A stretch of DNA of 39,058 bases, from contig JAVZCK010000019.1 of NCBI GenBank assembly GCA_038874435.1, positions 1 to 39,058 of the forward strand, given 5' to 3'. The stretch comes from Thermoplasmata archaeon. Lineage in GTDB: Archaea; Thermoplasmatota; Thermoplasmata; Lutacidiplasmatales; SKW197. Of the stretch, positions 1 through 34,434 are shown in pieces. Each line of letters opens with the position of its first letter. Positions within the stretch are counted from its first letter, which is position 1. A program made the translations under genes and the position numbers. A model generated the notes under the pieces. That model worked only from the letters and a program-made list of their open reading frames with translations. It ran no database searches and was not told the DNA's origin.

Positions 1-2
1 AT

Positions 3-1160
3 GGAAGTTTTGTGTGGATGAATGTATATACCAGCGATGTGAGGAACGGAGATGAACCGCCATGGGCACCATTGGCAAGGGCCCTGGCACCGATTCAGGT
101 TTACGAGGACATAAACCAGGAGTTTCCAACAAGCATTTTCTTTGATGGTGACAGAGACATGAGTAACAATGGGTTGCCAGCAACCTGGCCTGGTGGTGGC
201 ACAAATAGAAGATGGCACAGTGATGATGCAATTAATAACGCACTGGCAAAGTCGAACATGAGTGGAATGAAATATTATGCGAAATCGCTTGAAGAGAAAA
301 AGTCCATTACTACAGTATACCTCCAGGGCTTCCAGAAAGACAATCTCCTCGGTATCCAATACTGGTTCTACTATCCGTTCCACGATGACCCAGGCTTAGA
401 CCCGCATCCGCACGACTGGTGGTATTTCTGGGTTGTGTACGATGTCTCAGCAAAGAAACCAGTTAAGGTAATCTATGATTTCCATCACAATCTGAGAGCA
501 TGTGATTTTACAGACAGTGGGAGGGTAAAAAGAGAGGGCTTGCATGTCTACACATACCATGATGCAGGAGGTCATAGAACCTTGTGGGATGCTGGCGAGC
601 AACCTAGTTATTGGGATTTAGTCTGTCTCTCAAGGGGCTGGTCCTTAGCTGATGTTTATGAGGGAAGAGGATATCCGATATATACAACAAGAGATGTATT
701 GGCAGGTGATAAATTGTTTGGAACAATGATAGAGTATCTAAAACATCAAGGGACGATTGCAACTTGGAGAAATGAGAATAGTGACTGGAACGAAGGAGTT
801 ACACTGAGAGTTGAGGGCTTCAGCCATTGGGTCTGGGTGTGGAAAGTGGAAAACACACTCCAATCAGACCCAGAAAACATCAGAGCATTAGGATATGTTC
901 AGAAAGTTGTGAGAGTTTGTTTCACTGGTGATAACATGTATAGAGACGCGTATGGAGATTTATGGCCCTTGGGATTGTATGATGGACAGGGCAATCAGAA
1001 AATTAACTTCTACTTACCTTGGACGGTTAATTATATCTACTCTCATGGAACGATGATCTCCTCCACGATAATGGTCTGGTTCTGGCAGCAATATACAACT
1101 TATAACTTTTTCACGATGCATCCTGACATTTATACAAGGTATTACGATGGAAGTCCATAA
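3..1160 (+). CDS. Vps62/DUF946-like Trp-rich protein, 5' end cut by window edge (unit 1 large gene)
   Basis: The frame is open to the left edge, so the start probably lies outside; a GTG at 12 and an ATG at 18 are the only starts visible near the edge. Counting from the GTG, residues 26-43 (APIQVYEDINQEFP, then an acidic FFDGD) resemble the 'AP.l...dEkyfP' opening of Vps62/DUF946-like proteins. Residues 114-144 (IQYWFYYPF, then HPHDWW and VVYD) resemble the 'YWFfYP...HxxDWE' core of Vps62 and NPP1-like folds. The rest is rich in Trp and Tyr and ends in TRYYDGSP. No signal peptide is visible in the part seen. A membrane-anchored small gene follows at once, and the same pair recurs at 1752-3088. 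Family assignment is by eye only; molecular function is unknown. Confidence 0.6.
   Translation, partial: GSFVWMNVYTSDVRNGDEPPWAPLARALAPIQVYEDINQEFPTSIFFDGDRDMSNNGLPATWPGGGTNRRWHSDDAINNALAKSNMSGMKYYAKSLEEKKSITTVYLQGFQKDNLLGIQYWFYYPFHDDPGLDPHPHDWWYFWVVYDVSAKKPVKVIYDFHHNLRACDFTDSGRVKREGLHVYTYHDAGGHRTLWDAGEQPSYWDLVCLSRGWSLADVYEGRGYPIYTTRDVLAGDKLFGTMIEYLKHQGTIATWRNENSDWNEGVTLRVEGFSHWVWVWKVENTLQSDPENIRALGYVQKVVRVCFTGDNMYRDAYGDLWPLGLYDGQGNQKINFYLPWTVNYIYSHGTMISSTIMVWFWQQYTTYNFFTMHPDIYTRYYDGSP
100..208 (+). repeat. 109-bp perfect direct repeat, copy 1
   Basis: Identical to 3179-3287, with an offset of 3079 bp and no mismatch seen. It lies inside the N-terminal domain of the first Vps62-like gene. 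Both edges are sharp: the preceding base differs and the base after 208 is A here and G in the other copy. Confidence 0.9.
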
Positions 1161-1176
1161 GGGGAGGAGTATTTTT

Positions 1177-1740
1177 ATGCGAAAGGTAACCAAATCCATC
1201 TTTATCCTGATTAGTATTTTTCTACTTATATCATTTACCGTATTAGCGTTAATTTTGGTAACTTTAAGTACTAAGCCTTCTTCCTTGTGGGGTCTCAACA
1301 ATGCTGAAGGGGTGGTGTCTCTCACAATTTTTCTGAAACACGATACTGAAAATTACAACATAATAATTGGCGCAAATAATCTCACGAATGCGGGTTATAA
1401 ACCAATTATTTCTGGAAAAAACGATTGCTCAGATTGGAGTATCAGCACAATTTGGAAAATACCAGATGATAATTATGGACGACTATATACCTATAATATC
1501 TCAGTCACTTTGTATGGATTCAATTCCACCAACATACCCTCACGATCATTTATCAAAGCGGATTTTATTCCAGCTAGTATGGACACGGATCCTACTAAAA
1601 AGACAAAGGATAAAAATTTCTCAAAAACAGCTTGCTTTGAAATTGCATCTCTCCTAGGCGTAGAGTTAGATTGGGAACGACACACCTATATAATCGGATG
1701 GAGTAGTATGACATCCGAAGGTATCTATGAAGAAGAATAA
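1177..1740 (+). CDS. Small membrane-anchored partner protein (unit 1 small gene)
   Basis: This is a 187-residue protein of unrecognised family. The ATG at 1177 is preferred over an in-frame ATG at 1147, because GGGGAGG at 1161-1167 lies 9 nt upstream of it and the longer form would overlap the previous gene. Residues 1-6 are basic (MRKVTK) and residues 7-29 form one hydrophobic helix, so the likely topology is a signal anchor with the rest outside the cell. The exterior part holds several N-x-S/T sites. Its C-terminus (LDWERHTYIIGW) lines up with the end of the small gene at 2573 (CNLTVSWSDATWSVWY), so the two are probably diverged paralogues. Its constant position after a large Trp-rich gene suggests the two products act together; this is inference. 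Confidence 0.65.
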   Translation: MRKVTKSIFILISIFLLISFTVLALILVTLSTKPSSLWGLNNAEGVVSLTIFLKHDTENYNIIIGANNLTNAGYKPIISGKNDCSDWSISTIWKIPDDNYGRLYTYNISVTLYGFNSTNIPSRSFIKADFIPASMDTDPTKKTKDKNFSKTACFEIASLLGVELDWERHTYIIGWSSMTSEGIYEEE

Positions 1741-1751
1741 GGTGAATAAAA

Positions 1752-2561
1752 ATGTCAACAAAAAATAATGCAAACAACTACGAGAAGAAACCATCAGTTG
1801 TATCCGACCATCACAATCTGAGAGCATGTGATTTTACGGATACCAGAGTGCATAGAGAGGGAATCCATGTGTTCACATACCACGATGCAGAAGGTCATAG
1901 AGTGATGTATGGAAGAGGGTTAGATGTGCCAGACTTTACTTCTCTGTGGATCGGTTACCAGATATCTCAAGGAGGTAGACCTCTATACAATACATTTGAA
2001 CATGGCGGTCTTTACAGTTCCGATGGAGATTTTACAATAGGTCTGATGGTGGACTTGCTTTCAGCAAATGGAGAACTAGCTCCCTGGCGAGGCGTTTGGT
2101 TCTACTTTTATGACCCATGGTCAGGTGAGGGTAGATGGGAACTTCTCGCAGATTGGAATGCAGGAGTAACATTAAAAGTAGAAGACTTCCAGCACTGGGT
2201 TTGGGTGTATGGGGTGGAACCGAACAAAGGAGAAGATTCTTATGGTCAAGAAGTTGATTTAGTGAAATTCACAGAAACAGGTATGCCATTCTTTGATATG
2301 CCATATAACTCAGGAAAACCGAGGGATGGAAAAGAGTACTGGCCCCAGATGTACTATTTTAGTAATTACAGATTTTCTACACACCTCCCGTGGACCTCTG
2401 GGATTAGCTACCATGAGAGTACGCCAATATCTTCGACTGAAATGATATGGTGGTACAGACAATATGATCCAACTTCAGTTGAAAAAGCCGCAGGACATTA
2501 TACAGCGGGAACTCTTGGAAGCCCTACAATTTTTACTAGATATTATGATGGCTCACCGTAA
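1752..2561 (+). CDS. N-terminally truncated paralogue of the Vps62-like protein (unit 2 large gene)
   Basis: This 269-residue protein is homologous to the second part of the gene at 3-1160: HHNLRACDFTD, then H-x-F/Y-TYHDA-x-GHR, W-N-x-GVTL-x-VE, HWVWV and the identical end TRYYDGSP. It lacks everything before the HHNLRACDF motif, including the AP...P opening and the YWFYYPF/HDWW core. The remaining start (ATG 1752) has a ribosome site AAGGTGA at 1739-1745. The first 19 residues are Asn/Lys-rich, unlike a signal peptide. DNA at 1808-1837 is identical to 482-511. It may be a functional stand-alone C-terminal module or a decaying copy; the intact frame favours some retained function. Confidence 0.6.
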   Translation: MSTKNNANNYEKKPSVVSDHHNLRACDFTDTRVHREGIHVFTYHDAEGHRVMYGRGLDVPDFTSLWIGYQISQGGRPLYNTFEHGGLYSSDGDFTIGLMVDLLSANGELAPWRGVWFYFYDPWSGEGRWELLADWNAGVTLKVEDFQHWVWVYGVEPNKGEDSYGQEVDLVKFTETGMPFFDMPYNSGKPRDGKEYWPQMYYFSNYRFSTHLPWTSGISYHESTPISSTEMIWWYRQYDPTSVEKAAGHYTAGTLGSPTIFTRYYDGSP

Positions 2562-2572
2562 GGAGGTGGAAG

Positions 2573-3088
2573 ATGCTTTTGAGGAGATGGAGTATTCTTG
2601 TTATCATTTTTGTTGTGATATTTTGTTGTGTTTCTTTCTCATTTTTTATTTTTATAATTCCGTGGTCCAAAAATTTCCCATTTGATACGACCCATTATGT
2701 GAATGGGTTAGCCACAAGGCTCACTTTGAAGCCATCAGAAGTCGAAAGTTTAGATTTTAATAGGGTAAAAACTCAACTAGAGAAAATAGATTTTGGTATT
2801 GAAAATCACAGCAATCCTAATCCTAGTGGGAAATACTACAGGGAGTATATGATATACAGTCCACTCAACCGAACACCCATTATTCTATTATCTGTGTATG
2901 TTATCTTGGATATTTCTAACTCTACTCCTGATGCCTACATGGATGTGGACTACTGGGGAGTCTATCCCGAGAGTGAAATTGAGGCTAGGAAATCATATGT
3001 AGTCTCAGAAGTAAATCAAATATCACAAATATGCAACCTTACAGTAAGTTGGTCGGATGCCACATGGTCAGTATGGTATCAAGACTGA
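2573..3088 (+). CDS. Small membrane-anchored partner protein (unit 2 small gene)
   Basis: This is a 171-residue protein of unrecognised family. The start ATG 2573 is set by a strong AGGAGGT at 2561-2567, which overlaps the stop codon of the preceding gene and so suggests translational coupling. An Arg pair at residues 4-5 is followed by a hydrophobic stretch at about 8-29 (ILVIIFVVIFCCVSFSFFIF), again a single N-terminal anchor. The extracellular part is about 140 residues and ends in CNLTVSWSDATWSVWYQD, similar to the small gene of unit 1. Both small genes sit directly behind a large gene ending in TRYYDGSP, so the two-gene unit was duplicated as a block. Confidence 0.6.
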   Translation: MLLRRWSILVIIFVVIFCCVSFSFFIFIIPWSKNFPFDTTHYVNGLATRLTLKPSEVESLDFNRVKTQLEKIDFGIENHSNPNPSGKYYREYMIYSPLNRTPIILLSVYVILDISNSTPDAYMDVDYWGVYPESEIEARKSYVVSEVNQISQICNLTVSWSDATWSVWYQD

Positions 3089-3145
3089 GAGACTTTGAAT
3101 TAGTCTCATTGAGAATAGATTCCACCCCCGAGCATAATGTGAAGA

Positions 3146-3345
3146 TATGGTTAGATCATGCATTGGCCCAACTCTCGCTTTACGAGGACATAAACCAGGA
3201 GTTTCCAACAAGCATTTTCTTTGATGGTGACAGAGACATGAGTAACAATGGGTTGCCAGCAACCTGGCCTGGTGGTGGCACAAATAGGTGCCCTAAAATT
3301 CTTCCAATGAATTTTGATAATATTGATTTCCCTCAACCGAAATAA
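3146..3345 (+). pseudogene. 5' remnant of a third Vps62-like gene
   Basis: Positions 3179-3287 are identical, base for base, to 100-208 in the first gene, and the frame reads the same 36 residues (YEDINQEFP through WPGGGTN). The match ends abruptly at 3288. The frame then runs through unrelated sequence to a stop at 3343-3345, far short of the roughly 400 residues expected. An open frame extends left into the end of the small gene at 2573-3088, but it has no ribosome site of its own. I read this as a broken copy left by recombination rather than an expressed protein. Confidence 0.6.
3179..3287 (+). repeat. 109-bp perfect direct repeat, copy 2
   Basis: Second copy of 100-208, inside the gene remnant at 3146-3345. 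Perfect identity contrasts with the strong divergence of the two large genes elsewhere in the array, so this copy arose or was homogenised recently. Confidence 0.9.
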
Positions 3346-3502: not shown

Positions 3503-6500
3503 ATGAAAGAAGGGTGTAATTCTCACGAGAAAGGCAGGAGAAATTCCTTCCGCATGGGCAAAAAAGGGGTCTCAGAGGTTTTAGCTCAGCTTATGATTCT
3601 CACTATCACCGTAGTTTTGTTTTCTACGATTTTTTTGTGGGTGCATGCTCTACCCCCTGCTCAGGGCTATCCAAAAACTGAACTTCGAGGTGGAATGGAA
3701 ATTAAAGGCGTCTCTCCATACACCTACTACATCAATCTCACGCACATAAACGGTGAACCGCTAGAATACAATTCAACGGTTATCTATGTTTCAGTTGTAG
3801 CCGATGGTTCTAGCTATGTGCTGAATATAAGAAACGGCACTACCAAGTATTTGCTCCAGCCCGGTGATGTATGGTCTTGGACCCTCTCTAAAACCTTCAT
3901 CTCAAATGTGAGCGTTAAAATTGTGAATCCGATTAAAAACTATGTTGTTTGGCAGGCACTCCTTACTGGCTACATTCCAGATGAAGCTCCCTCCATAGTG
4001 GAGCGTGGCACCACACCAGACCCTGTGGTCATTGAACATGAATTCAAGGTCTGGGCAATAGTGAGAGATGCTGACCTGAACTACAATTCCGTCTATGTAA
4101 ATCTCTCTTCAATAGACCCTGTAAGGTTTCCCCAACCAATCAAAATGAACAATACTGTGGGCTGGAGATTTGAAACCGCAAACCTTTCTCTTAACGAAAA
4201 CATGGAACCAGGCAAATTCACAGTGATGCTATGGGCTGTGGACATGAAGGGACACAACACCACTGCGCTGCTCACAATAAACATTGTTTCGGGGGAGGGA
4301 ATGCCAAAGCTTGTTGTGGAGATGATTGAACTCTCAAATGGCTCGCCCACGCGAGGTGAAAAGGTCACAATTAATGCGATAATCAAAAACATGGGGAAGA
4401 GGGCAGCTGAATCCTCTGTCATTACATTCATTGATTACAGCGACCTTCATCCCTCTGGTATTGAAATTGGGAACCTGACGAATTTTTCAGTTTCTGGCTA
4501 CGGACAAAACATGGCGTTTATTGACTGGGTTGCCTCCCCCGGGGGTCTTCATAAAATTGAAGTGACAATAACCTATGTAATGCCTGGTAATCTGACAGGA
4601 ACGCCTGGAAATATTACTGTGGTTGTAAACCCGAAGGTCCTTCTTGTGGATGATGATGCCGCAATCGCAGGAAGTTCTGACGATTGTGTTTCAAATATTT
4701 CTGCAGCGCTCACCGCTTCAAATATAAAATTCGATGTAGTTCTGGTGGCTGCTGGTGCGGATGGACCTAAATACGACAGTGGCGATAAGCAACTGAAAGA
4801 TTACGATGTAGTAATCTGGGTTGGTGGTAGGGCAAACTACACACTTACAACCAACGACCAGAACAACTTATCAAGATTCATGAACAATGGCGGGAGGGCA
4901 TGGCTTGTTGGCCAGAACATTTTGGAAGGCGCAAATTCCCTCTACACAATGCTTGGGATAAGCAGTGTAAGTACCATTCCACTACCTGCATCTCTCCGTG
5001 GTGCAGACCCTGGCACTGGCTGGATTAACACTTCTTCGCTCACACCTGCACTGGTATCTGCGTCTCCATTCAACATTGCTAGAAAACTCACCCTAGGAAG
5101 TGCAAAGACCCTATTTACAGATTATGGAGTGACGAACATTGTTAGCTCACAGTATAAGGCTGGTGCATACAGGGTTGTGGCAATGCCCCATGAGTTTGGA
5201 AGGATAAGAGACACGGGAGACCAGGCAGTTATTGCCTACAAAATTGTGAACTGGCTTGGTGGAATAAACAACAGAACAGGAGAAGACCTTGCGGTCTCAG
5301 GACAGGTGATTTCACCACTGAATCCAAGATACAATCAACCTGTGAACATTACTGTGACTGTAAGAAACAACGGTGAAACAAGACAGACCACTGAAGTTGG
5401 CTTGATAATCAACGGAAAATTTGAGTCAACGCTGGTGCAAATGGTGACCCTTGACCCGAACGGGGACTCAAAGACACTGCCTCCGTTTTCATGGACTCCT
5501 CCAGGTGTAGGAAATTATGTGATTAAAGCAATGATTGACCCCAAAAACCAGATTGAGGAAACGAATGAGGAGAACAATGTCTATGTTAGCGAGATGGGTG
5601 TCTTTGAGATTGAGGTCATTTACACAGTGCTGGTTGTAGATGACGATTCTTCCAACACAAGTGGCTACCTGGATGTGGGAGCAAATGTGGTCAGATCGCT
5701 CACCCAGATTGGCTACACTGTTGGTTATGATTTGGACATTGATTGGGTTCCAATCGGGCAGAGCAGAAACCAGACAAAATACCCGCTCAGAAACTACAAC
5801 ACGGTGATATGGGTCACCGGGACGACTACAGGTACTGCACCTGCAAACACGCTAACTGCTGTTGACATCACTGACATAAAGAATTATCTAACAAGTGCAC
5901 CCACCCAGGTTTCATTTCTCCTGATCGGGAGAAGTGTGCTCTCAGACACAAATGTGCCTGCTGATTTTAAGAGGGATTATCTCGGTGCAGATATAACTGC
6001 GGGCAGCTCAATTCAGATGTCGGTTGTCTATGGAGTGCGAGAGAGCCCTATCACAAACGGAATTGCATTCCAAATGGATAATGCAAGTTTCTCTGGCAAC
6101 TACCTAGCAAGAAGCTACAGAAACACCGCAAATGCAATCCCACTCTTCTGGGCTGATGCGTCTAACTACTGGTATAGAACGAGTGACCTTGTTGTCGGGA
6201 GTGCGTTGAGGGATGTAAGTGGGTGGCATTCTGCTTATCTCGCCTTCGACCTCGCCTACACTACAAACATTAGTGCAGCCGCAGATTTCCTCTATGGAGT
6301 TATCCACTGGTTTGGAAAATTAGAGAATAAACCTGAACTGAGGGTAACACCACCAGATATGTTCGCAGGCACGAACACAAGGCAATACATAATTTTGCCG
6401 GAGCTTAATCCACAGCTTGGTGAATCTTATGTGCTTAAAGCCAACATCACGAACTGGGGAGGCCAGGATGCGGATGTGATTGTGAGATTCCTTGATGGCG

Positions 6501-9500
6501 ATACGGTTATTGGCTCTCAGAATGTGCATGTACCTGCAAGCTACAGGGATGCTTTTGGGCAAACCCAGAATGGCAAAGTGACTGCTGAGGTTATCTGGAC
6601 TCCTCTGTTTGCAGGATTTGAGCCAATCAGGGTAAATGTGGACCCTGAGAACTTGCTTGCAGGCATTGAAGCTCTGCGTCCCAACAACCTGGCAGAGCAA
6701 AGGATAGAGGTTTATTACTTCTATGATGATTTAGAAGAACCATCAAGAGTGTTAAGAAACTGGAAGCATGAGTCAACAATTGTGCGAATCAATGGAGAGG
6801 CACCACTGGAATACCTAGACCCTGGAAGCGATGTAAATGTCAACATTGCTAGATACTGGGATGGCTGGGACAAGTCCACAACAAAATTGCATGGATTCTC
6901 TCTCACCAACACCACTTATCACTCCTATCCCAATTGCTATGGAATGAAGGAACCCGCCGGTGAGGTGCCATTCATCTACGAATTCTACCTTCCAATAGAT
7001 GCATGGGACAACACAGGTTTTGGTCAAGGTTTCTATTTCGTTGGTGTGAATAAAACCTCAAATTACACACTCTGGAGATTTGATAGAGCAACACCTAAAT
7101 GGGATAGAATTGATACAAACACGATAAATGCAGGGCAGATAAGATTGTATGAAACCCAGACGCCAGAGACAGTATATAGAGTCGTGTCTAACGGCCCGAT
7201 GTTAATAGTGGTCACATCAAGTGAGGGCTCAAATGTGAACTGTGCAAACTGGGTAGATGGACTGGGAAGAGGCAGGAATTTCGTTGTTATGGGCGACATC
7301 AGAAACAGGCTTGGTGGCGAGACGCATGTGGTCGCAATAAATCCATATGGTGGCACTACTACAGTTACCGTAGAATGGGTTAACTATGCGAATGGTGCAG
7401 TAATTGAGACTGATACCCTTACCTTGGCGGGTGCAGGTTCTTGGCAGGAAGCTAGACTGAATGCCAACCACTATACCGCTTACGCTAGAGTTACTGCAAC
7501 AAATGACATTATTCTTTATCGTCTTTCAAACGACAATGATGAGATTGACAATGCGATGGGAGTGGGTGGGACAAGTTTGGATACGACCCTCTATTGTGTG
7601 ACCTATAGGTCTGTAAGTTCCTGGCCGTGGAGATTCTATATTGCAAATCCTGGTAGCACAGCTGCAACAGTCACGGTGCAGGAAATTGCAGGTGGTAGTT
7701 GGAGTGACACATGTACAGTAAATCCAACATCATTTTATATATTGAGTCGAAATTCTCCACCCAGCGATGGGAATCTCCATGTATTTCGGATAACCTCTAC
7801 TCAACCAGTAAGGGTAATCTTCGGACAGGACCAGTTTGGTGGCACATCCTTTAATACCGACTTCTTTGGTGCCTATCAGACCAACTTTGGCGTGGATTCT
7901 GTGGTCCAATATGTTCCCTCTAACGAAATCCCAGGGCAATATACCATAAGCTCGCCCACAGTTTATGCTACAAGCGGGAGCTCTGTCTCTATCCAATACT
8001 GTTATCAACACTTTTCTTTTGGAAAGGGAGATAGTGTGACCATAAACCCAAGTTTGCCAATCCTTGGTGTAACTAGTAACGCAAACATTCCTTCAAACAG
8101 CATCGACTATGTTGCTACATTCAATTTCACGCTTTCCTACACCACCATTGGAACAATAAGCAATATTCAATACAGAATAGATGGAGGAGCATGGCAGACT
8201 GTGGGCGGCGGTGCAATCTCACTGCCATGGGGTGCACACACCGTTTCATTCCAGGCATCAGTTAGCATAAACGGATACTTTGGAATCAATGGCATTTCAT
8301 TTAGTGAAGGTGGCTCAATTGTCTGGCAACTGAACAATGTGGCTGATAACCCGGCAACGGCAATCAATGAAAGAACTACACACTTTGGAGATAACAACTA
8401 TGCCTGGCAATACACTGCCAACAACAGGTTCCTTTACATTTTTGGTGGTGGTGGCAATTGCTGGATCCATACAATTCTCCCGTTTGAGGGTGCGACATTG
8501 GCAGGTGGTGGTGGCGGCGCTGGTATTTCTCCGATGGCATACAATCCAGTAAAACCAAATGCAGTCGTTATTTCCCAACCAAAGGATACAGAAGGATGTA
8601 ACTACACACAGACACCTGCGTTCACACTCTCATCAGAGATGGAAAGTGTGCACATTTCATTCTATCACAAGTTCTCTCTCGTGCCCTTCTTCAATGGGGG
8701 CGTGATAATGGTGGGAACAAGTGATAGTAACTGGAAATATGAATATATTGAGCCCACAAAACCGTATCCTACAAATACCTTGCTTTTCATGTTCCAGGAT
8801 GCCTATGGTCACTGGATGAACTGGGTTTATTCTGGTAACAGTGGAGGTAACACAGGTGACTGGGAGTTCGGAGAGGTCAACCTCACAAAGTACATACCCG
8901 CAAGTGGCACAAGACAGATAAAAGTGGCATTCCAGTATCTGTTCGGTGGTGCTGGTCTCAACGGCTATTGGTACATCGACGATGTTACTGTAAAAATAAC
9001 GAGGAAAAACAGTGCAAACGCAGCAGGTGTAGCAGACCAGTGGCAGTATATACAGGATGCAAACCGAGCCCACAGGGGTTCTGGTGTCTGGTGGAATGGA
9101 AACCCATCAACGGGTTATCTCTCTGGTGGCATTGATAACGCACTTATCACAAGACCCATTGATCTCACAAACGCAAAAAATGCAACGCTTGCTGCCTACT
9201 TCAGATTCAATGTAAACTGGGGTGTGGGTGGTGCTGGCAGACCTCCTGACGGCTTTAGAGTTGAAGTCAGTGCAGATAATGGCGTTACCTGGCAGCCCAT
9301 CTGCCTTGGTGTGCGAAGCGGCTGGAATGTTTCTGGTTGGGAGAATAGCCCAGATTTAGACCCAATAAGGCCGGGAATCCAAACCTACACTGGTGTCACA
9401 GAAACAGGGGATAAAGCATACTGGGTACCTGCAAGCTCGCTATACAGATTGAATGTTGACCTATCTGGCTGGAGAGGGTCTGTGGTCTTGCTCAGATTCC

Positions 9501-9895
9501 GTGTGGTCACAAACTCCACGCTGCCAAACCACTATGCACAACCAATCAGCACTGTTGGCTTCGGTGGACTTTACATCGATGATATCAAGGTCTTCGGTGA
9601 GACCATAATTCATGGAATGCAAGCATATGTAACAAAAGAGTTAGTGCCAGAGATCACTGAAGAAAAGGAGAAGCATGTTTGCAGTGAGGCAATTGTGGAG
9701 ACACAAAATCCCTCTACCAATTGTGAAAATGCACCGATTGATTGCATGGTAAACTCGGATACCAGATGTGAATCTACAAATCTAAATTATCTTAGCATTT
9801 TTGCTCAATTTACTGTTTTTGTTGCCGTATGGAATGTTACTGTAAAAGTTTTGAGACCAACAAAATCAAAAGGTGGTGATAAAAATGAAGAATAG
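3503..9895 (+). CDS. Giant pilin-anchored surface protein A (CARDB, VLLVDDD and MAM-like domains)
   Basis: A 2130-residue extracellular protein. A basic N-terminus ends in KKG (20-22), followed by VSEV and a hydrophobic helix (23-45), the form of an archaeal class III signal peptide cut after Gly22 by a prepilin peptidase. ATG 3503 fits the promoter; ATG 3554 is an alternative. Domains: CARDB-like about 266-377; Rossmann-like VLLVDDD about 378-590; CARDB about 592-705 (IEETNEENNVYVS); second LVVDDD about 708-940; CARDB-like about 943-1075; unrecognised beta-rich block about 1150-1680 with Gly-rich linkers; two MAM/jellyroll-like domains about 1690-2040 (YIDDV, YIDDIKVFGE). A hydrophobic stretch near the C-terminus is followed by a basic tail, perhaps a second membrane contact. 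N-x-S/T sequons are frequent. An adhesin or cell-envelope role is inferred. Confidence 0.8.
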   Translation: MKEGCNSHEKGRRNSFRMGKKGVSEVLAQLMILTITVVLFSTIFLWVHALPPAQGYPKTELRGGMEIKGVSPYTYYINLTHINGEPLEYNSTVIYVSVVADGSSYVLNIRNGTTKYLLQPGDVWSWTLSKTFISNVSVKIVNPIKNYVVWQALLTGYIPDEAPSIVERGTTPDPVVIEHEFKVWAIVRDADLNYNSVYVNLSSIDPVRFPQPIKMNNTVGWRFETANLSLNENMEPGKFTVMLWAVDMKGHNTTALLTINIVSGEGMPKLVVEMIELSNGSPTRGEKVTINAIIKNMGKRAAESSVITFIDYSDLHPSGIEIGNLTNFSVSGYGQNMAFIDWVASPGGLHKIEVTITYVMPGNLTGTPGNITVVVNPKVLLVDDDAAIAGSSDDCVSNISAALTASNIKFDVVLVAAGADGPKYDSGDKQLKDYDVVIWVGGRANYTLTTNDQNNLSRFMNNGGRAWLVGQNILEGANSLYTMLGISSVSTIPLPASLRGADPGTGWINTSSLTPALVSASPFNIARKLTLGSAKTLFTDYGVTNIVSSQYKAGAYRVVAMPHEFGRIRDTGDQAVIAYKIVNWLGGINNRTGEDLAVSGQVISPLNPRYNQPVNITVTVRNNGETRQTTEVGLIINGKFESTLVQMVTLDPNGDSKTLPPFSWTPPGVGNYVIKAMIDPKNQIEETNEENNVYVSEMGVFEIEVIYTVLVVDDDSSNTSGYLDVGANVVRSLTQIGYTVGYDLDIDWVPIGQSRNQTKYPLRNYNTVIWVTGTTTGTAPANTLTAVDITDIKNYLTSAPTQVSFLLIGRSVLSDTNVPADFKRDYLGADITAGSSIQMSVVYGVRESPITNGIAFQMDNASFSGNYLARSYRNTANAIPLFWADASNYWYRTSDLVVGSALRDVSGWHSAYLAFDLAYTTNISAAADFLYGVIHWFGKLENKPELRVTPPDMFAGTNTRQYIILPELNPQLGESYVLKANITNWGGQDADVIVRFLDGDTVIGSQNVHVPASYRDAFGQTQNGKVTAEVIWTPLFAGFEPIRVNVDPENLLAGIEALRPNNLAEQRIEVYYFYDDLEEPSRVLRNWKHESTIVRINGEAPLEYLDPGSDVNVNIARYWDGWDKSTTKLHGFSLTNTTYHSYPNCYGMKEPAGEVPFIYEFYLPIDAWDNTGFGQGFYFVGVNKTSNYTLWRFDRATPKWDRIDTNTINAGQIRLYETQTPETVYRVVSNGPMLIVVTSSEGSNVNCANWVDGLGRGRNFVVMGDIRNRLGGETHVVAINPYGGTTTVTVEWVNYANGAVIETDTLTLAGAGSWQEARLNANHYTAYARVTATNDIILYRLSNDNDEIDNAMGVGGTSLDTTLYCVTYRSVSSWPWRFYIANPGSTAATVTVQEIAGGSWSDTCTVNPTSFYILSRNSPPSDGNLHVFRITSTQPVRVIFGQDQFGGTSFNTDFFGAYQTNFGVDSVVQYVPSNEIPGQYTISSPTVYATSGSSVSIQYCYQHFSFGKGDSVTINPSLPILGVTSNANIPSNSIDYVATFNFTLSYTTIGTISNIQYRIDGGAWQTVGGGAISLPWGAHTVSFQASVSINGYFGINGISFSEGGSIVWQLNNVADNPATAINERTTHFGDNNYAWQYTANNRFLYIFGGGGNCWIHTILPFEGATLAGGGGGAGISPMAYNPVKPNAVVISQPKDTEGCNYTQTPAFTLSSEMESVHISFYHKFSLVPFFNGGVIMVGTSDSNWKYEYIEPTKPYPTNTLLFMFQDAYGHWMNWVYSGNSGGNTGDWEFGEVNLTKYIPASGTRQIKVAFQYLFGGAGLNGYWYIDDVTVKITRKNSANAAGVADQWQYIQDANRAHRGSGVWWNGNPSTGYLSGGIDNALITRPIDLTNAKNATLAAYFRFNVNWGVGGAGRPPDGFRVEVSADNGVTWQPICLGVRSGWNVSGWENSPDLDPIRPGIQTYTGVTETGDKAYWVPASSLYRLNVDLSGWRGSVVLLRFRVVTNSTLPNHYAQPISTVGFGGLYIDDIKVFGETIIHGMQAYVTKELVPEITEEKEKHVCSEAIVETQNPSTNCENAPIDCMVNSDTRCESTNLNYLSIFAQFTVFVAVWNVTVKVLRPTKSKGGDKNEE
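9287..9616 (+). repeat. Near-identical C-terminal segment, copy in gene A
   Basis: Aligns without gaps to 14904-15233. I count about 11 mismatches in 330 bp by eye. The N-terminal and middle shared domains are visibly less similar in DNA. Confidence 0.75.
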
Positions 9896-12800
9896 AAATA
9901 GAAGTTTGAAGAAAGGTGTTTCGGATGTGATTGCAACGCTGCTGATTCTAGCGATAACAGTGACGCTATTCAGCACGATCTTTGTATGGGTACAGACATT
10001 TCCTCCACCGGAAGGCAAGAGAGTTGTGGAAATTGAAGGAGAGCGAGGAATTAGTGAGGTCGCAGCTGGGCAATACAAGTACTACATTAATCTTACCCAC
10101 AAGGGCGGAGAACCGCTCTCAAAAAATCTGATAAACATTGTAATCACGCTCACAGATGTGGTGCCCACTGCCGTATTTGTCAAAACTGTTAGTGATTCTA
10201 CAGTAAATCTCGGCGATTTCTGGGAGTCAGGAGAGGTGTGGCGCTGGAACACTACGGGCACATATACTGTAATATCAAACATCACTGTTGTGGTCATTGA
10301 TACTGCGAAAAACATGATGATATGGCAGGGAAGATTACCAGGCATAGATTTAGATGCTCCGCCGCAGATTCTAGAGAGAGGAACAGAACCTGAAGTTGTG
10401 GAAACAGGAAAGGCATTTCGTGTCTGGGTTATTGTAAAGGATACAGACCTAAATTTCAATTCTGTGTATATAGACCTCCAGAAATTAGATAACACTACAT
10501 TCAGATACCCGATAAAAATGAACCACACATCTGGCTGGAAGTTCATTACGGAAAATCTCTCGCTTTCACCAACCGTTATGCCTGGCCGGTATACTGGCAT
10601 TATTAATGCCACGGACAACAAGAGCCATACTACTGTAGCCCAGATCACGATTAATGTAGTTACTGGTGAGGGCTTGCCTCAGCTAATTGTGGACCGCATA
10701 TTATTAAGCAATCAGTCTCCTACAAGGGGAGATAATGTCACAATCACTGCAGTGATAAAGAACTTAAAGGCAAGAGCAGCACAGAACGCTACAATTACCT
10801 TTAATGATTCACTTAGTAACTGGAATTATACCACGAACATCTCAGTTTCTGGCTATGGGCAAACCCTTGTGTTCACATACTGGGAGGCAAAGCCAGGTGG
10901 CGTGCATCGCATCAGTGTTAACATCACAAATGTGATGCCTGGAAATCTCACAGGAATCGGGGCAAATGTGACGGTGGTGGTCACGCCCAGGATTTTGCTT
11001 GTCGATGATGATGGAGCACTCACTGGTAGTCCGAACGATGTGGTTTCCTACATGGCTTCTGCCCTGATTTCCACAAACTTGCGGTATGATATTGCAGTTG
11101 TTTCTGGCGGTGCAGATGGTCCTGGTTACAACACGGGTGAAAAGAAATTAAAAGATTATGATGTGGTTATATGGATGGGAGGCAGCACCAACAGCACACT
11201 TACAGCCAATGACCAAAACAATCTCAACACCTTCCTTGACAACGGAGGCAGATTGTGGCTAATAGGACAGAACATCTTTGAAACCGTGCCTTCCTGGTTT
11301 ACAAATAAGGTTGGTGCAGGAATCAGCAACACTATCGCAATGCCTGCGAGATTAATTGGCACAAATCCTGGTGCTAACTGGATAGATACAAGTGGGCTCA
11401 ATCCACCGCTGCAGAGTGTTTCACCATTCACAATCGCAAGGCAGCTCAACCCTGTGTCAGGAGCAAGACCTGTATTTTACGATACTTCTTCCACACGTGT
11501 ACTCGCCACTCAATATAACGCCTCCACTTACAAGACAGTTGTGTTCGGTTTTGAATTTGCAAGAATAAACAGCACAGGAGACCAGGCGGTGATTGTGTAC
11601 AAAGTAATCAACTGGCTTGCAGGGATTGACCTGAGGACTGGTGTGGATGTGGCAGTTGCAGGGCAGACAATTGAACCCCTAACTCCCAGGTATAATCAGC
11701 CAGTAAACATCACTGCAATCATCAGAAACAATGGAAATGTGAATCTTACAGGTGTGAGGACACGTCTCTACATTAACGACCAGCCAAAGACCCTGTTGGA
11801 CAATGTCACTGATCTTGCTGGCAATGGAAGCTGGAAATCTATCAAATTCCAGTGGGTGCCTGATAGAGTGGGAAGTTACATTGTGAAGGTTATGGTCGAC
11901 CCAGATAACGAAATTGATGAAACAAACGAGGCAAATAATGTCTATGTTTCAGATGTAGCTGTGTTCAAAATTGAAGTTATTTACACTGCATTGCTTGTAG
12001 ATGACGATTCCTCATCTGAGAATGGTGGCGGTGGAACAAATCCAGATGTTGCAGCGCATGTGCTGAAAGCCCTTAATTTGCTTGGCTACACTGTCGGTGT
12101 GAATTTAGATGTTCAGAAAGTTCCGCGCGGACAGGATAGAGACAACAACGCATATAATGCCTCAAACTATAGCTGCATAATTTGGGTTACTGGTGCATGC
12201 AGTGCAGGCGGTGGTTACAACACCCTCACCAACAACGATATGAATGTCATCCAGAACTATCTGAGTGCTGGGCTTGACCAGGTTTCCTTCCTGCTCATCG
12301 GTAGAAACATTCTTGCAGATAGCGTGGTGCAGAACCGTCCTGATTTCTACCAGAACATCATGGGTGCAAGCACAACTGGTAGTGTGGTTGCGAAAACAGA
12401 GGTTTATGGCGTCCGGGAAAACCCTGTAACTAATGGGATGTATATTGGATTTGATAATGCCAGCATTGCCCCCTACAATGTGCGTTCCTACACCAAAATC
12501 GCCTCCGCTATCCCGTTGTTCTGGGCAGATGGAACGAGTTACTGGACAAGAACAAGCGACAATGTTGTAGGCACCGGCATAGCAAGCAACTCGGGCTGGC
12601 ATTCTGCCTACCTCTCCTTCGACCTTGCCTACACCACAAACACGAGTGCAGTGGCAGAATTCCTCTATGGAGTTATCCACTGGTTCGGGCGATTGGATAA
12701 CAAGCCAGAACTTAGAGTAACACCACCCGATATGTTTGCAGGCACAAACACAAGGCAGTACATAATTTTGCCAGAATTGAACCCACAGCTTGGCGAATCC

Positions 12801-15482
12801 TATGTGCTTAAGGCAAACATCACAAACTGGGGAGGAAAAGATGCGGACGTGATTGTAAGATTCTTAGATGGCGATACGGTTATCGGCTCCCAGAATGTGC
12901 ATGTGCCTGCAAGCTATAGAGATGTTTCTGGACAAACTCAAAATGGCAAGGTGACCGCAGAAGTTATCTGGACGCCATTATTTGCAGGCATTGAACCAAT
13001 CAGGGCAAATGTGGACCCTGATGGCCTGCTTGTGGGTGTTGAATTCCTTCGCCCGAACAATTTGGCAGAGCAACGAATTGAGGTGTACTATTTCTACGAT
13101 GACCTCGAAGACCCAGCAAAGGTTTCAATGAACTGGAAGCATGAGGCAACACTCTTACGGATCAATGGCGAGGCCCCGCTGGAATACATGGACCCAGTAG
13201 GTAATGTAGATGTCAACATTATAAGGAACTGGGAGGAGATGAAGGGCTTCAACAAGACCAACAAATCAGCTCACACTTATCCAAGCTCATTCTACATGAC
13301 AGAGGCAACTGGTGGCGGCAGATTGCCAATGAGCGTGCATATTGTGATAGATGCTAGTGGGTCTATGAGAGATGATTGGCCAGGCAATCCTGGAAAATGG
13401 ACCGCTACAAGAAACGCTCTCTTTGCGTTCTTAGATAAAATGAATACTACACTTGGAGATGAGGCCTGCTTGACAATGTTCTCTCACTCGGGTGTTACAG
13501 CCGGAGAAGTAAATCTCAGGAGCTATACATATACAAATCCCTATTGGGCTGCAAATTATGGGGATGCTTATCAATATACATGGGTTCATGTAATTAATAG
13601 ATTTACCACGAACATGCAAACCATCAAAAATGCGTTTGACGCAAGAGGCCCATACGGAAATACTCCACTTACAGATGCAATTGGTTTTGGCGCAAGGTGG
13701 CTCGTGGACAATGAGTATGTTGGTGGGCAAAGAGTGGGCTATAACAGAAGCCACTATCCTGCATTGATTGTTCTCACGGATGGTGCTTCAAACTACAACA
13801 ACCCTTATGGCACAGCCAACACAAACGCCATAAATGATATCAGGGGAAACGCATGGGGTGGTGTACCTGCACTCAGATTTGATGGTGGCAAAACGCTTAA
13901 CTCCACAGTGCCTGTGTTTATAATTGGTTTGGGCGGTGATGCCGTAGATAGTTATCTACAGCCTGTTGCAGATGCATCGTTTCAGATACTCAAGAGAGGA
14001 CCATTCTCGAGCGGAGGGCATACATGGAGAGATCAGTATTTCTATGCTCCCACAGGTAATGAACTCCAAGCAATCTTTGATGCCATCTTCAAAGCCCTAG
14101 AGGACTGGGGTGGCGATGTTACTGCCCCACCAATGGTCCCAACTGCTGCAAATCCTGCACAGCCGATGGCAATAACACTAACAAGGCCAATAAACACAAA
14201 CGGCTGTAACTATACGCTCACGCCTGCAATCACATTGAGCGCTGACATGGCTACTGCCAAACTCACATTCTATCACAGATACAACATGGTGGTTGGTAAA
14301 AACGGAGGCGTGGTGTTAGTTGGAACTTCCGATGGCAGCTTTAACAACTTCAAATATCTGGTGCCTACCAAAAACTATCCAAACAATCTTGCAACTGGCC
14401 TCTATGTAGATGCTTATGGGAATCCGATAACATATGCATATTCGGGAAGCAGTGCAGGAAGCACTGCTGGCTGGGAATATGCCGAATTTGACCTCACCCA
14501 ATTCATCCCTGCTAGTGGAACGAGACAGATAAAGATTGCCTTCCAGTTCCTTGCAAAATCTGAGAACACAGGTAACGGCGGTTTCTGGTACATTGACGAT
14601 GTTGAGGTGAAAATAACGAGGAAAAACACAGGAAGTGCAAGCAATGTGGCAGACCAGTGGCAGTATATACAGGATGCAAACAGGGCGCACAGGGGTTCTG
14701 GTGTCTGGTGGAATGGCAATCCTAGCACTGGCTATTTCTCTGGTGGCATTGACAACTCGCTGATCACAAGGCCCATTGACCTGACCAATGCAAGGAATGC
14801 TACGCTCTCCGCCTACTTTAGATTCAATGTAAACTGGGGTACAGGCGGCACCGGAAGACCTCCTGACGGTTTCAGAGTTGAAGTGAGTGCAGACAATGGC
14901 GTGACCTGGCAGCCCATCTGCCTTGGTGTGCGAAGCGGCTGGAATGTTTCTGGTTGGGAGAATGCTCCAGATTTAGACCCAATAAGGCCGGGAATCCAAA
15001 CCTACACTGGTGTCACAGAAACAGGGGATAAAGCATACTGGGTGCCTGCAAGCTCGCTCTACAGATTGAATGTTGACCTATCTGGTTGGAGAGGGTCTGT
15101 GGTCTTGCTCAGATTCCGTGTGGTCACAAACTCTACGCTGGCAAACCACTATGCACAACCAATCAGCAGTGTTGGCTTCGGTGGACTCTACATCGATGAT
15201 ATCAAGGTCTTCGGTGAGACAATAATTCATGGAACACCACAAGCAAAGGTGACTGTACCCGCGCCAACAAACGATTACGCCAGAATGTCTGATGCAGGAC
15301 AACCGTGCACTGCAGATAAATCGCAGAATGCAGAGATTTCTAAGGAAATAAACAGCATCTCTGAGCTGCCCGCTACATCGCCCTCTGGTTCATTCTACAG
15401 CATTTTCTTTATCGCTTCCACAATTTTGGCAGCGCCATGTACAAGAACATCACAGCAGGGAAGACCAAAATCTTTTTCATAA
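9885..15482 (+). CDS. Giant pilin-anchored surface protein B with von Willebrand A domain
   Basis: A 1865-residue paralogue of the preceding protein. ATG 9885 is chosen because AGGTGGTGAT at 9871-9880 precedes it; the start overlaps the end of gene A by 11 bp, so translation is probably coupled. A class III signal peptide is seen (KKG then VSDV, cut after residue 11). Order: CARDB-like about 263-368; VLLVDDD about 369-585; CARDB about 586-700; second LLVDDD about 702-940; CARDB-like about 941-1070; vWA about 1146-1409; two MAM-like domains about 1426-1786. The vWA has a full metal site: DASGS near 1156, TPLTDA and LTDGAS. It replaces the unknown block of A. The last 29 codons overlap the 3' end of the opposing DUF1611 gene and supply a hydrophobic FYSIFFIASTILAA followed by a basic tail. 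Metal-dependent adhesion is inferred. Confidence 0.8.
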   Translation: MKNRNRSLKKGVSDVIATLLILAITVTLFSTIFVWVQTFPPPEGKRVVEIEGERGISEVAAGQYKYYINLTHKGGEPLSKNLINIVITLTDVVPTAVFVKTVSDSTVNLGDFWESGEVWRWNTTGTYTVISNITVVVIDTAKNMMIWQGRLPGIDLDAPPQILERGTEPEVVETGKAFRVWVIVKDTDLNFNSVYIDLQKLDNTTFRYPIKMNHTSGWKFITENLSLSPTVMPGRYTGIINATDNKSHTTVAQITINVVTGEGLPQLIVDRILLSNQSPTRGDNVTITAVIKNLKARAAQNATITFNDSLSNWNYTTNISVSGYGQTLVFTYWEAKPGGVHRISVNITNVMPGNLTGIGANVTVVVTPRILLVDDDGALTGSPNDVVSYMASALISTNLRYDIAVVSGGADGPGYNTGEKKLKDYDVVIWMGGSTNSTLTANDQNNLNTFLDNGGRLWLIGQNIFETVPSWFTNKVGAGISNTIAMPARLIGTNPGANWIDTSGLNPPLQSVSPFTIARQLNPVSGARPVFYDTSSTRVLATQYNASTYKTVVFGFEFARINSTGDQAVIVYKVINWLAGIDLRTGVDVAVAGQTIEPLTPRYNQPVNITAIIRNNGNVNLTGVRTRLYINDQPKTLLDNVTDLAGNGSWKSIKFQWVPDRVGSYIVKVMVDPDNEIDETNEANNVYVSDVAVFKIEVIYTALLVDDDSSSENGGGGTNPDVAAHVLKALNLLGYTVGVNLDVQKVPRGQDRDNNAYNASNYSCIIWVTGACSAGGGYNTLTNNDMNVIQNYLSAGLDQVSFLLIGRNILADSVVQNRPDFYQNIMGASTTGSVVAKTEVYGVRENPVTNGMYIGFDNASIAPYNVRSYTKIASAIPLFWADGTSYWTRTSDNVVGTGIASNSGWHSAYLSFDLAYTTNTSAVAEFLYGVIHWFGRLDNKPELRVTPPDMFAGTNTRQYIILPELNPQLGESYVLKANITNWGGKDADVIVRFLDGDTVIGSQNVHVPASYRDVSGQTQNGKVTAEVIWTPLFAGIEPIRANVDPDGLLVGVEFLRPNNLAEQRIEVYYFYDDLEDPAKVSMNWKHEATLLRINGEAPLEYMDPVGNVDVNIIRNWEEMKGFNKTNKSAHTYPSSFYMTEATGGGRLPMSVHIVIDASGSMRDDWPGNPGKWTATRNALFAFLDKMNTTLGDEACLTMFSHSGVTAGEVNLRSYTYTNPYWAANYGDAYQYTWVHVINRFTTNMQTIKNAFDARGPYGNTPLTDAIGFGARWLVDNEYVGGQRVGYNRSHYPALIVLTDGASNYNNPYGTANTNAINDIRGNAWGGVPALRFDGGKTLNSTVPVFIIGLGGDAVDSYLQPVADASFQILKRGPFSSGGHTWRDQYFYAPTGNELQAIFDAIFKALEDWGGDVTAPPMVPTAANPAQPMAITLTRPINTNGCNYTLTPAITLSADMATAKLTFYHRYNMVVGKNGGVVLVGTSDGSFNNFKYLVPTKNYPNNLATGLYVDAYGNPITYAYSGSSAGSTAGWEYAEFDLTQFIPASGTRQIKIAFQFLAKSENTGNGGFWYIDDVEVKITRKNTGSASNVADQWQYIQDANRAHRGSGVWWNGNPSTGYFSGGIDNSLITRPIDLTNARNATLSAYFRFNVNWGTGGTGRPPDGFRVEVSADNGVTWQPICLGVRSGWNVSGWENAPDLDPIRPGIQTYTGVTETGDKAYWVPASSLYRLNVDLSGWRGSVVLLRFRVVTNSTLANHYAQPISSVGFGGLYIDDIKVFGETIIHGTPQAKVTVPAPTNDYARMSDAGQPCTADKSQNAEISKEINSISELPATSPSGSFYSIFFIASTILAAPCTRTSQQGRPKSFS
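14904..15233 (+). repeat. Near-identical C-terminal segment, copy in gene B
   Basis: Partner of 9287-9616 with a constant offset of 5617 bp. It codes for the last MAM-like domain. The similarity falls off sharply after the shared FGETIIHG motif. Confidence 0.75.
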
Positions 15483-34395: not shown

Positions 34396-34404
34396 ACTAT
34401 GTGG

Positions 34405-34411
34405 CCTCCTT
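34405..34411 (-). promoter_or_regulatory. Strong ribosome binding site that fixes the Kelch protein start
   Basis: AAGGAGG on the minus strand, 9 nt before ATG 34395. It rules out the longer frame opening with TTG at 34434. Confidence 0.6.
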
Positions 34412-34434
34412 ACTCTTCCGAAATATTTCTTCAA

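What the first reader, a model, noticed from the sequence alone, without database searches (positions are those of the whole stretch)
1..3345. Tandem array of paired genes: Trp-rich Vps62-like protein plus membrane-anchored partner, with decay
Two consecutive units have the same layout: a large gene ending in TRYYDGSP, then a ribosome site, then a small protein with one N-terminal membrane anchor and a similar W-rich end. A third unit survives only as a 5' scrap. Fixed pairing, block duplication, N-terminal loss in unit 2 and orphan fragments resemble arrays of variable secreted effectors with partner proteins. No such archaeal system is known to me for this family, so this is the best candidate here for an undescribed system. 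The effector or immunity reading is speculation.
Basis: partly seen in the sequence, partly recalled or inferred. Interest (0 to 1): 0.7.

Follow-up and report, generated by a model that had tools for sequence, protein, structure and literature searches.

The report
Archaeal toxin–immunity-like surface gene array
The left end of this archaeal contig carries a shuffled array of large surface-protein ends, each followed by its own small membrane-anchored partner, which looks like a previously undescribed archaeal version of the "polymorphic toxin plus immunity protein" weapons known from bacteria; toxicity itself is untested.

Summary
Window 1-3345 has two tandem units (large Vps62-like protein + small single-TM partner) and a 5' scrap containing a 109-bp perfect repeat of unit 1. 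Contig C38 of the same genome adds two more units. Copies are DNA mosaics: 97-100% identical blocks switch abruptly to ~50% before each variable C-terminus. The same pair occurs in two other Thermoplasmata-type archaea. In Yes46-08 the large protein is >=1359 aa with CARDB and TSP3 repeats before the Vps62-like end. JdFR-45 has an N-truncated unit plus a second unit reduced to the effector's last ~30 residues, partner intact. Partners are one divergent family: N-terminal TM, predicted alpha/beta ectodomain, strong sequon enrichment. A third genome keeps orphan partners without any effector. The window's genome has two further TSP3-stalk arrays with unrelated effector ends and different membrane partners. 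Best reading: a polymorphic toxin/immunity-like system whose effectors probably act on the cell envelope, with N-truncated cassettes as a recombination reservoir. The Vps62-like domain connects remotely to the Vps62/NPP1 superfamily. Toxicity, immunity and a complete gene are not shown; effector-partner co-variation was inconclusive. New variant of a known kind.

The parts
3..1160 (+). Unit 1 large (effector-like) protein, 385 aa seen, 5' part missing at the contig edge; ends TRYYDGSP
   Evidence: homologues
66..587 (+). Vps62/NPP1-superfamily-like core of unit 1 (residues ~22-195), with HPHDWW motif at 405-422
   Evidence: hhalign A4 vs A6 prob 97.2, E 4.2e-11; A6 members pass Pfam Vps62 and, one, NPP1 cut-offs
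843..1157 (+). Variable C-terminal region of unit 1 (residues 281-385), after the shared/mosaic part
   Evidence: identity drops from 100% to ~47% against C38 unit 1
689..815 (+). 127 bp exactly shared with the sense start of contig C38: branch point to an alternative C-terminus and partner
1161..1169 (+). Strong ribosome-binding site (GGGGAGGAG) of partner 1
1177..1740 (+). Unit 1 partner: TM helix at residues 10-28, ectodomain; orthologue 40% identical in Aciduliprofundum sp. JdFR-45
1752..2561 (+). Unit 2 large protein, N-truncated (no signal peptide/TM), ends TRYYDGSP; orphan cassette
1808..2220 (+). Block 98.3% identical (413 bp) to C38 unit 2, then abrupt divergence
2562..2569 (+). Strong ribosome-binding site (GGAGGTGG) of partner 2
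2573..3088 (+). Unit 2 partner: N-terminal TM helix plus alpha/beta ectodomain (AlphaFold2 mean pLDDT 85.8)
3151..3288 (+). 5' scrap of a third unit (matches residues 24-69 of unit 1)
3179..3287 (+). 109-bp perfect direct repeat of 100-208, bracketing the two-unit block
100..208 (+). Upstream copy of the 109-bp perfect direct repeat

Best explanation
This is an archaeal polymorphic-toxin-like array. A long secreted or surface protein (stalk of CARDB and TSP3 repeats, as in the Yes46-08 relative) presents a C-terminal Vps62/NPP1-like effector whose last ~105 residues vary. The gene directly downstream encodes a cognate immunity-like protein anchored in the producer's own membrane with its domain facing outside. 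Downstream lie N-truncated effector ends, each still with its partner, plus homology scraps. Homologous recombination within the near-identical N-side blocks swaps a new C-terminus and its partner onto the expressed gene. Because the partners are extracytoplasmic or integral membrane proteins, the effector most likely acts on the envelope of neighbouring cells (membrane or surface damage), not on nucleic acids. Shown: anatomy, homology, mosaicism, tandem units, pairing in other genomes, orphan partners, parallel arrays. Inferred: secretion of the window copy, toxicity, immunity, envelope target, cassette switching as a process that serves the system.
For: (1) Pairing: all four units of this genome, Yes46-08 and JdFR-45 have a partner directly downstream, mostly behind a strong Shine-Dalgarno site. 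(2) Mosaic: 97-100% identical DNA switches abruptly to ~50%; C38 branches off window unit 1 after exactly 127 bp. (3) N-truncated cassettes lack signal peptides but keep partners; in JdFR-45 a partner survives with only ~30 effector residues left. (4) Genome G147 has two orphan partners (one intact, one decayed) and no effector match. (5) Partners: one N-terminal TM, mostly with K/R before it, sequons 40 vs 13.2+-3.3 expected, confident ectodomain fold. (6) Yes46-08 effector carries CARDB + TSP3 upstream. (7) Two further TSP3-stalk arrays in the same genome with unrelated effector ends and different membrane partners. (8) This matches the polymorphic-toxin layout as described in PMC8416519.
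Against: No known toxin domain is found and no Pfam, NCBIfam, PADLOC or PDB sequence match exists for the window's unit 1 protein. The last residues TRYYDGSP are conserved and C-termini are still homologous, so this is less 'polymorphic' than typical systems. C-terminus/partner co-variation was not significant (r=0.26, p=0.12, n=6). No complete full-length gene was seen: both long copies are cut by contig ends, and JdFR-45 shows only truncated copies. The two contigs could come from strain variants in a metagenome-type assembly. The Vps62-like HxHDW motif has W where the related archaeal proteins have E.
Confidence: 0.6

Rival explanations
1. Variable adhesin or surface antigen: the large protein is a cell-surface recognition protein whose tip is varied by gene conversion from silent cassettes, and the small protein is its membrane anchor or surface co-receptor.
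For: CARDB/TSP3 stalks, mosaic blocks and N-truncated silent cassettes fit antigenic or recognition variation equally well; downstream neighbours are other large surface proteins with pilin-type N-termini; VARTIG authors consider self/non-self recognition for a similar layout (PMC8416519).
Against: Partners are kept in every cassette, survive effector loss in JdFR-45 and stand alone in G147, which an anchor would not need. The parallel arrays use a different partner per effector type.
Confidence: 0.22
2. The partner is a dedicated folding/secretion chaperone for the large protein, not an immunity protein.
For: Immediate downstream position and strong ribosome site; single TM with outward domain.
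Against: Orphan partners without effectors; partners of N-truncated, signal-less cassettes remain open.
Confidence: 0.08
3. The array is mainly a by-product: lineage-specific tandem duplication and decay of a surface enzyme/binding protein with no conflict role, partly exaggerated by strain variants in the assembly.
For: Contig ends overlap by 127 bp as in k-mer assembly graphs; C38's last partner lacks a good start and its natural end; the family is rare.
Against: Same pair and same truncated-tandem layout in an independent genome (L016) and parallel arrays in this genome; C-termini and partners diverged far while N-side blocks stayed near-identical.
Confidence: 0.1

Closest known systems
Polymorphic toxin systems (PTS; Zhang et al. 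2012, PMC3482391)
   Same: Long first protein, downstream genes homologous to its C-terminal part, a dedicated downstream partner for each, recombination between cassettes.
   Different: No recognised toxin domain; C-termini remain one family within the array; partners are outward-facing membrane proteins; archaeal CARDB/TSP3 stalk rather than RHS, filamentous haemagglutinin, WXG etc.
VARTIG, Thermococcales (PMC8416519)
   Same: Archaeal, large secreted protein with hypervariable C-terminus, downstream membrane proteins, PTS-like organisation, function inferred only.
   Different: VARTIG's variable part is an Ig domain and is confined to Thermococcales; here it is a Vps62-like end, with same-genome N-truncated cassettes and fixed effector-partner pairs.
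Vps62 (PF06101) / NPP1 (PF05630) families
   Same: Window core aligns by profile to archaeal proteins that score above the Pfam cut-offs for Vps62 (three) and NPP1 (one).
   Different: Window proteins themselves hit neither model; the motif reads HPHDWW instead of HxGDWE; no partner gene was seen for those relatives.
Bacterial orphan CDI/Rhs toxin-immunity modules (own knowledge, not tested)
   Same: N-truncated toxin ends with cognate immunity genes downstream of a full-length gene, sharing a homology block for recombination.
   Different: No sequence relation found; no delivery machinery of those kinds identified here.

Membership tests
Polymorphic toxin system | Long protein whose C-terminal part recurs in downstream co-directed genes | tested here: met
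   window units 1-2, C38 units, L016
Polymorphic toxin system | Dedicated partner gene immediately downstream of each effector end | tested here: met
   six of six copies plus one remnant
Polymorphic toxin system | Recombination generating C-terminal diversity | tested here: met
   mosaic identity with sharp breaks
Polymorphic toxin system | Secretion leader and repeat/stalk region upstream of the effector | tested here: inconclusive
   CARDB + TSP3 stalk in Yes46-08; leader lies beyond the contig ends in both long copies
Polymorphic toxin system | Recognisable toxin domain | tested here: not met
   no Pfam/NCBIfam/PDB match; only remote Vps62/NPP1-type relation
Polymorphic toxin system | Partner neutralises the toxin | not testable with these tools
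   needs expression or binding assays
Polymorphic toxin system | C-terminus type predicts partner type | tested here: inconclusive
   r=0.26, p=0.12, six units
VARTIG | Hypervariable C-terminal Ig domain, Thermococcales only | tested here: not met
   no Ig domain call in the effector end; named relatives are Thermoplasmata-type archaea
Vps62 (PF06101) | Score above Pfam gathering cut-off | tested here: not met
   no hit; remote relation only
NPP1 (PF05630) | Score above Pfam gathering cut-off | tested here: not met
   window protein no hit; one relative of the superfamily passes at 25.8 vs 21 bits

The most novel reading that the evidence does not exclude
Some Thermoplasmata carry an undescribed platform of envelope-acting polymorphic toxins: TSP3/CARDB-stalk proteins with interchangeable ends (Vps62/NPP1-like, helical membrane-active, peptidase-like), each paired with its own outward-facing or multi-pass membrane immunity protein, and refreshed from N-truncated cassettes by homologous recombination. 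At least three such arrays coexist in this one genome.
Probability: 0.4. Interest if true: 0.75.

Novelty: new variant of a known kind. Interest (0 to 1): 0.6.

Why it matters
Archaeal polymorphic toxins reported so far are mostly nuclease-tipped (PMC8416519, citing Makarova et al. 2019). A family whose partners all sit in or outside the membrane would point to envelope-targeting antagonism among archaea and gives a concrete toxin-immunity pair to test. It would also assign a possible function to a Vps62-type domain, whose role is poorly known, and give an archaeal case of cassette recombination with visible DNA breakpoints.

Tried and rejected
Pfam, NCBIfam, PADLOC and PDB sequence searches of window proteins: nothing usable. 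PF06101 in the own genome: no hit, uninformative. Viral contigs, phages and plasmids: no relatives of the large protein, so no sign of a mobile-element origin. AlphaFold2 of the large protein: pLDDT 33, discarded. Foldseek of the partner: best TM 0.42 (YwmB), no E<=0.001, so no fold family assigned. Mantel-type test of C-terminus vs partner similarity: not significant. Second array's partner in 150 relatives: none outside this genome. Partner-profile scan of viral contigs could not be run. Makarova et al. 2019 (mBio) not held.
Full report
WHAT IS THERE. The window is the entire contig C19 of a 2.16-Mb, 43-contig archaeal genome. At its left end are two tandem units on the + strand. Unit 1 is a large ORF (3-1160, its 5' part lost at the contig edge) followed by a small ORF (1177-1740). 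Unit 2 is a large ORF (1752-2561) lacking about 150 N-terminal residues of unit 1, followed by a small ORF (2573-3088). Both large proteins end in TRYYDGSP and are homologous (E 4e-40). A scrap at 3151-3288 matches residues 24-69 of unit 1 and contains a 109-bp perfect repeat of 100-208. So the two-unit block is bracketed by a perfect direct repeat. Each small gene follows a strong ribosome site.

MORE UNITS IN THE SAME GENOME. Contig C38 (8,274 bp) carries two more units on its minus strand: large 8273-7815 (cut) + small 7792-7295, and large 7265-6327 + small from about 6264 to 5812. The last small gene has no good start and its natural end is replaced by downstream sequence. The sense start of C38 is exactly identical to window 689-815 over 127 bp and then diverges. 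Other contig ends in this assembly also overlap by exactly 127 bp, so C38 is an alternative continuation of the window's unit-1 gene: either a second locus or a strain variant.

MOSAIC STRUCTURE. Aligned copies show blocks of near identity that stop abruptly. C19 unit 1 vs C38 unit 2: about 98% over window ~338-500, then ~50-70%. C19 unit 1 vs C38 unit 1: 100% over 689-815, then ~47%. C19 unit 2 vs C38 unit 2: 97-100% over most of 1808-2220, then ~50%. C38 unit 2 is therefore a chimera of a unit-1-like front and a unit-2-like middle. The variable part is the last ~105 residues, after the HWVWV(Y/W) motif, plus the partner gene.

RELATIVES. One scan of 84,980 genomes found two true relatives. 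L015 (Thermoplasmatales archaeon Yes46-08) has a >=1359-aa protein with a CARDB domain and TSP3 repeats (Pfam) before the Vps62-like end, followed by a lipoprotein-like partner. L016 (Aciduliprofundum sp. JdFR-45) has an N-truncated large gene (7986-8936) with partner 8951-9499, then a remnant of a second large gene (...YYYDWTPISPTIYTRYYDGS, most similar to the C38 unit 2 tail) and a second intact partner, 9596-10279. No further effector copies exist in those two genomes at this sensitivity; one extra weak partner-profile hit was not followed. In 400 genomes of the class, the partner profile rings only in this genome, in JdFR-45 and in G147. G147 has one intact stand-alone partner between unrelated genes and one decayed copy, with no effector match. 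Viral, phage and plasmid collections gave nothing.

THE LARGE PROTEIN. It has no direct Pfam, NCBIfam or PDB match. Other Thermoplasmata encode membrane proteins with a remotely similar ectodomain. Profile-profile comparison gives 97.2% probability, E 4.2e-11, over residues 22-195. Three of six of those proteins pass the Pfam Vps62 cut-off and one also passes NPP1 (25.8 vs 21 bits). So 'Vps62-like' is right as a remote relation. The superfamily motif HxGDWE reads HPHDWW here. That NPP1 proteins act on outer membrane leaflets is my own knowledge and only a hint. The AlphaFold2 model was useless (pLDDT 33).

THE PARTNER. All partners have one N-terminal TM segment, all but the start-less C38 copy with K/R before it. 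N-x-S/T sequons in their ectodomains number 40 against 13.2+-3.3 in shuffles, which fits an extracellular, glycosylated domain. The unit-2 partner model is good (pLDDT 85.8): TM helix 2-34 plus an alpha/beta domain, but no solved fold matches convincingly (best TM 0.42). The two window partners are not similar directly; they join one family through relatives.

PARALLEL ARRAYS IN THE SAME GENOME. Searching with the Yes46-08 stalk found two further sets. Array 2: a >=4148-aa TSP3-bearing protein on C24 runs off its contig end; that end overlaps C28 by 90 bp. C42 and C28 overlap by exactly 127 bp at both junctions, so C42 reads as a repeated unit in the path C24 -> [C28:1-810] -> C42 -> [C28:1-810] -> C28. 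It carries helical effector ends with hydrophobic segments, ~430-470-aa partners with two TM segments, and N-truncated effector cassettes that each keep a partner. Between C28 and C42 the first partners differ in their first ~100 residues and in a second stretch towards the C-terminus, but are otherwise ~100% identical; the effectors differ mainly in a ~30-residue patch and the last residues. Array 3 on C21 has TSP3-stalk genes with ~89% identical stalk DNA, different ends (one looks peptidase C13/caspase-like by eye) and small multi-pass membrane proteins between them; a stalk scrap lies at the end of C33.

INTERPRETATION. The layout (long protein first, co-directed C-terminal homologues, a dedicated partner beside each) is what PMC8416519 gives as typical of polymorphic toxin systems and compares with the archaeal module VARTIG. 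Two facts favour immunity over anchor or chaperone: partners remain beside effectors that cannot be exported or have been deleted, and they occur as orphans. All partners being membrane proteins, with the window family facing outward, suggests an envelope-acting effector. I put this at 0.6. The main rival is a variable surface recognition protein with a membrane co-protein (0.22). Toxicity and neutralisation are not shown, the specificity test was inconclusive (r=0.26, p=0.12, six pairs), no full-length gene is complete, and strain mixture cannot be excluded.

VERDICT. A real, recombining effector-partner array, found as a pair in three different archaeal genomes, best filed as a new variant of polymorphic toxin-like systems and not as a proven member, because a recognisable toxin domain was tested and not found.

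Noticed in passing
G000 contigs C24 (L042), C28 (L044, L049), C42 (L043): Second array: >=4148-aa TSP3 protein, helical effector ends, ~430-470-aa membrane partners; variable patches sit at the effector end and in the partner's N-terminus while the rest is ~100% identical. Partner not found in 150 relatives.
   Followed up: partly
G000 contig C21 (L046:6239-11402) and C33 end (L048:5354-5641): Third set of TSP3-stalk genes with different ends and interposed multi-pass membrane proteins; one end looks like a C13/caspase-type peptidase by eye (not confirmed by Pfam). About 4.5 kb of C21 is masked.
   Followed up: partly
G000 contig C10 (L045:1070-5812): 1580-aa CARDB/TSP3 protein whose C-terminus also looks like a C13/caspase-type peptidase by eye.
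   Followed up: no
window 3503-9895 and 9873-15482: Two tandem very large surface proteins, the first with a pilin-type N-terminus and CARDB by Pfam; stretches 81-90% identical in DNA between them with a divergent middle (the second has a vWA-like insert by eye).
   Followed up: no
window 29974-34434: 1486-aa kelch-like plus fibronectin-type-III-like surface protein (by eye) with an internal 136-bp, 78% repeat.
   Followed up: no
L081:6887-7435 and L080:1940-2284 (genome G147): Stand-alone partner genes without any effector nearby: candidate orphan immunity genes.
   Followed up: partly
L009:4614-5812 (C38): The C38 array ends in the last partner's 3' end running into an unrelated 386-aa ORF without a clear start, a possible recombination junction.
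   Followed up: no
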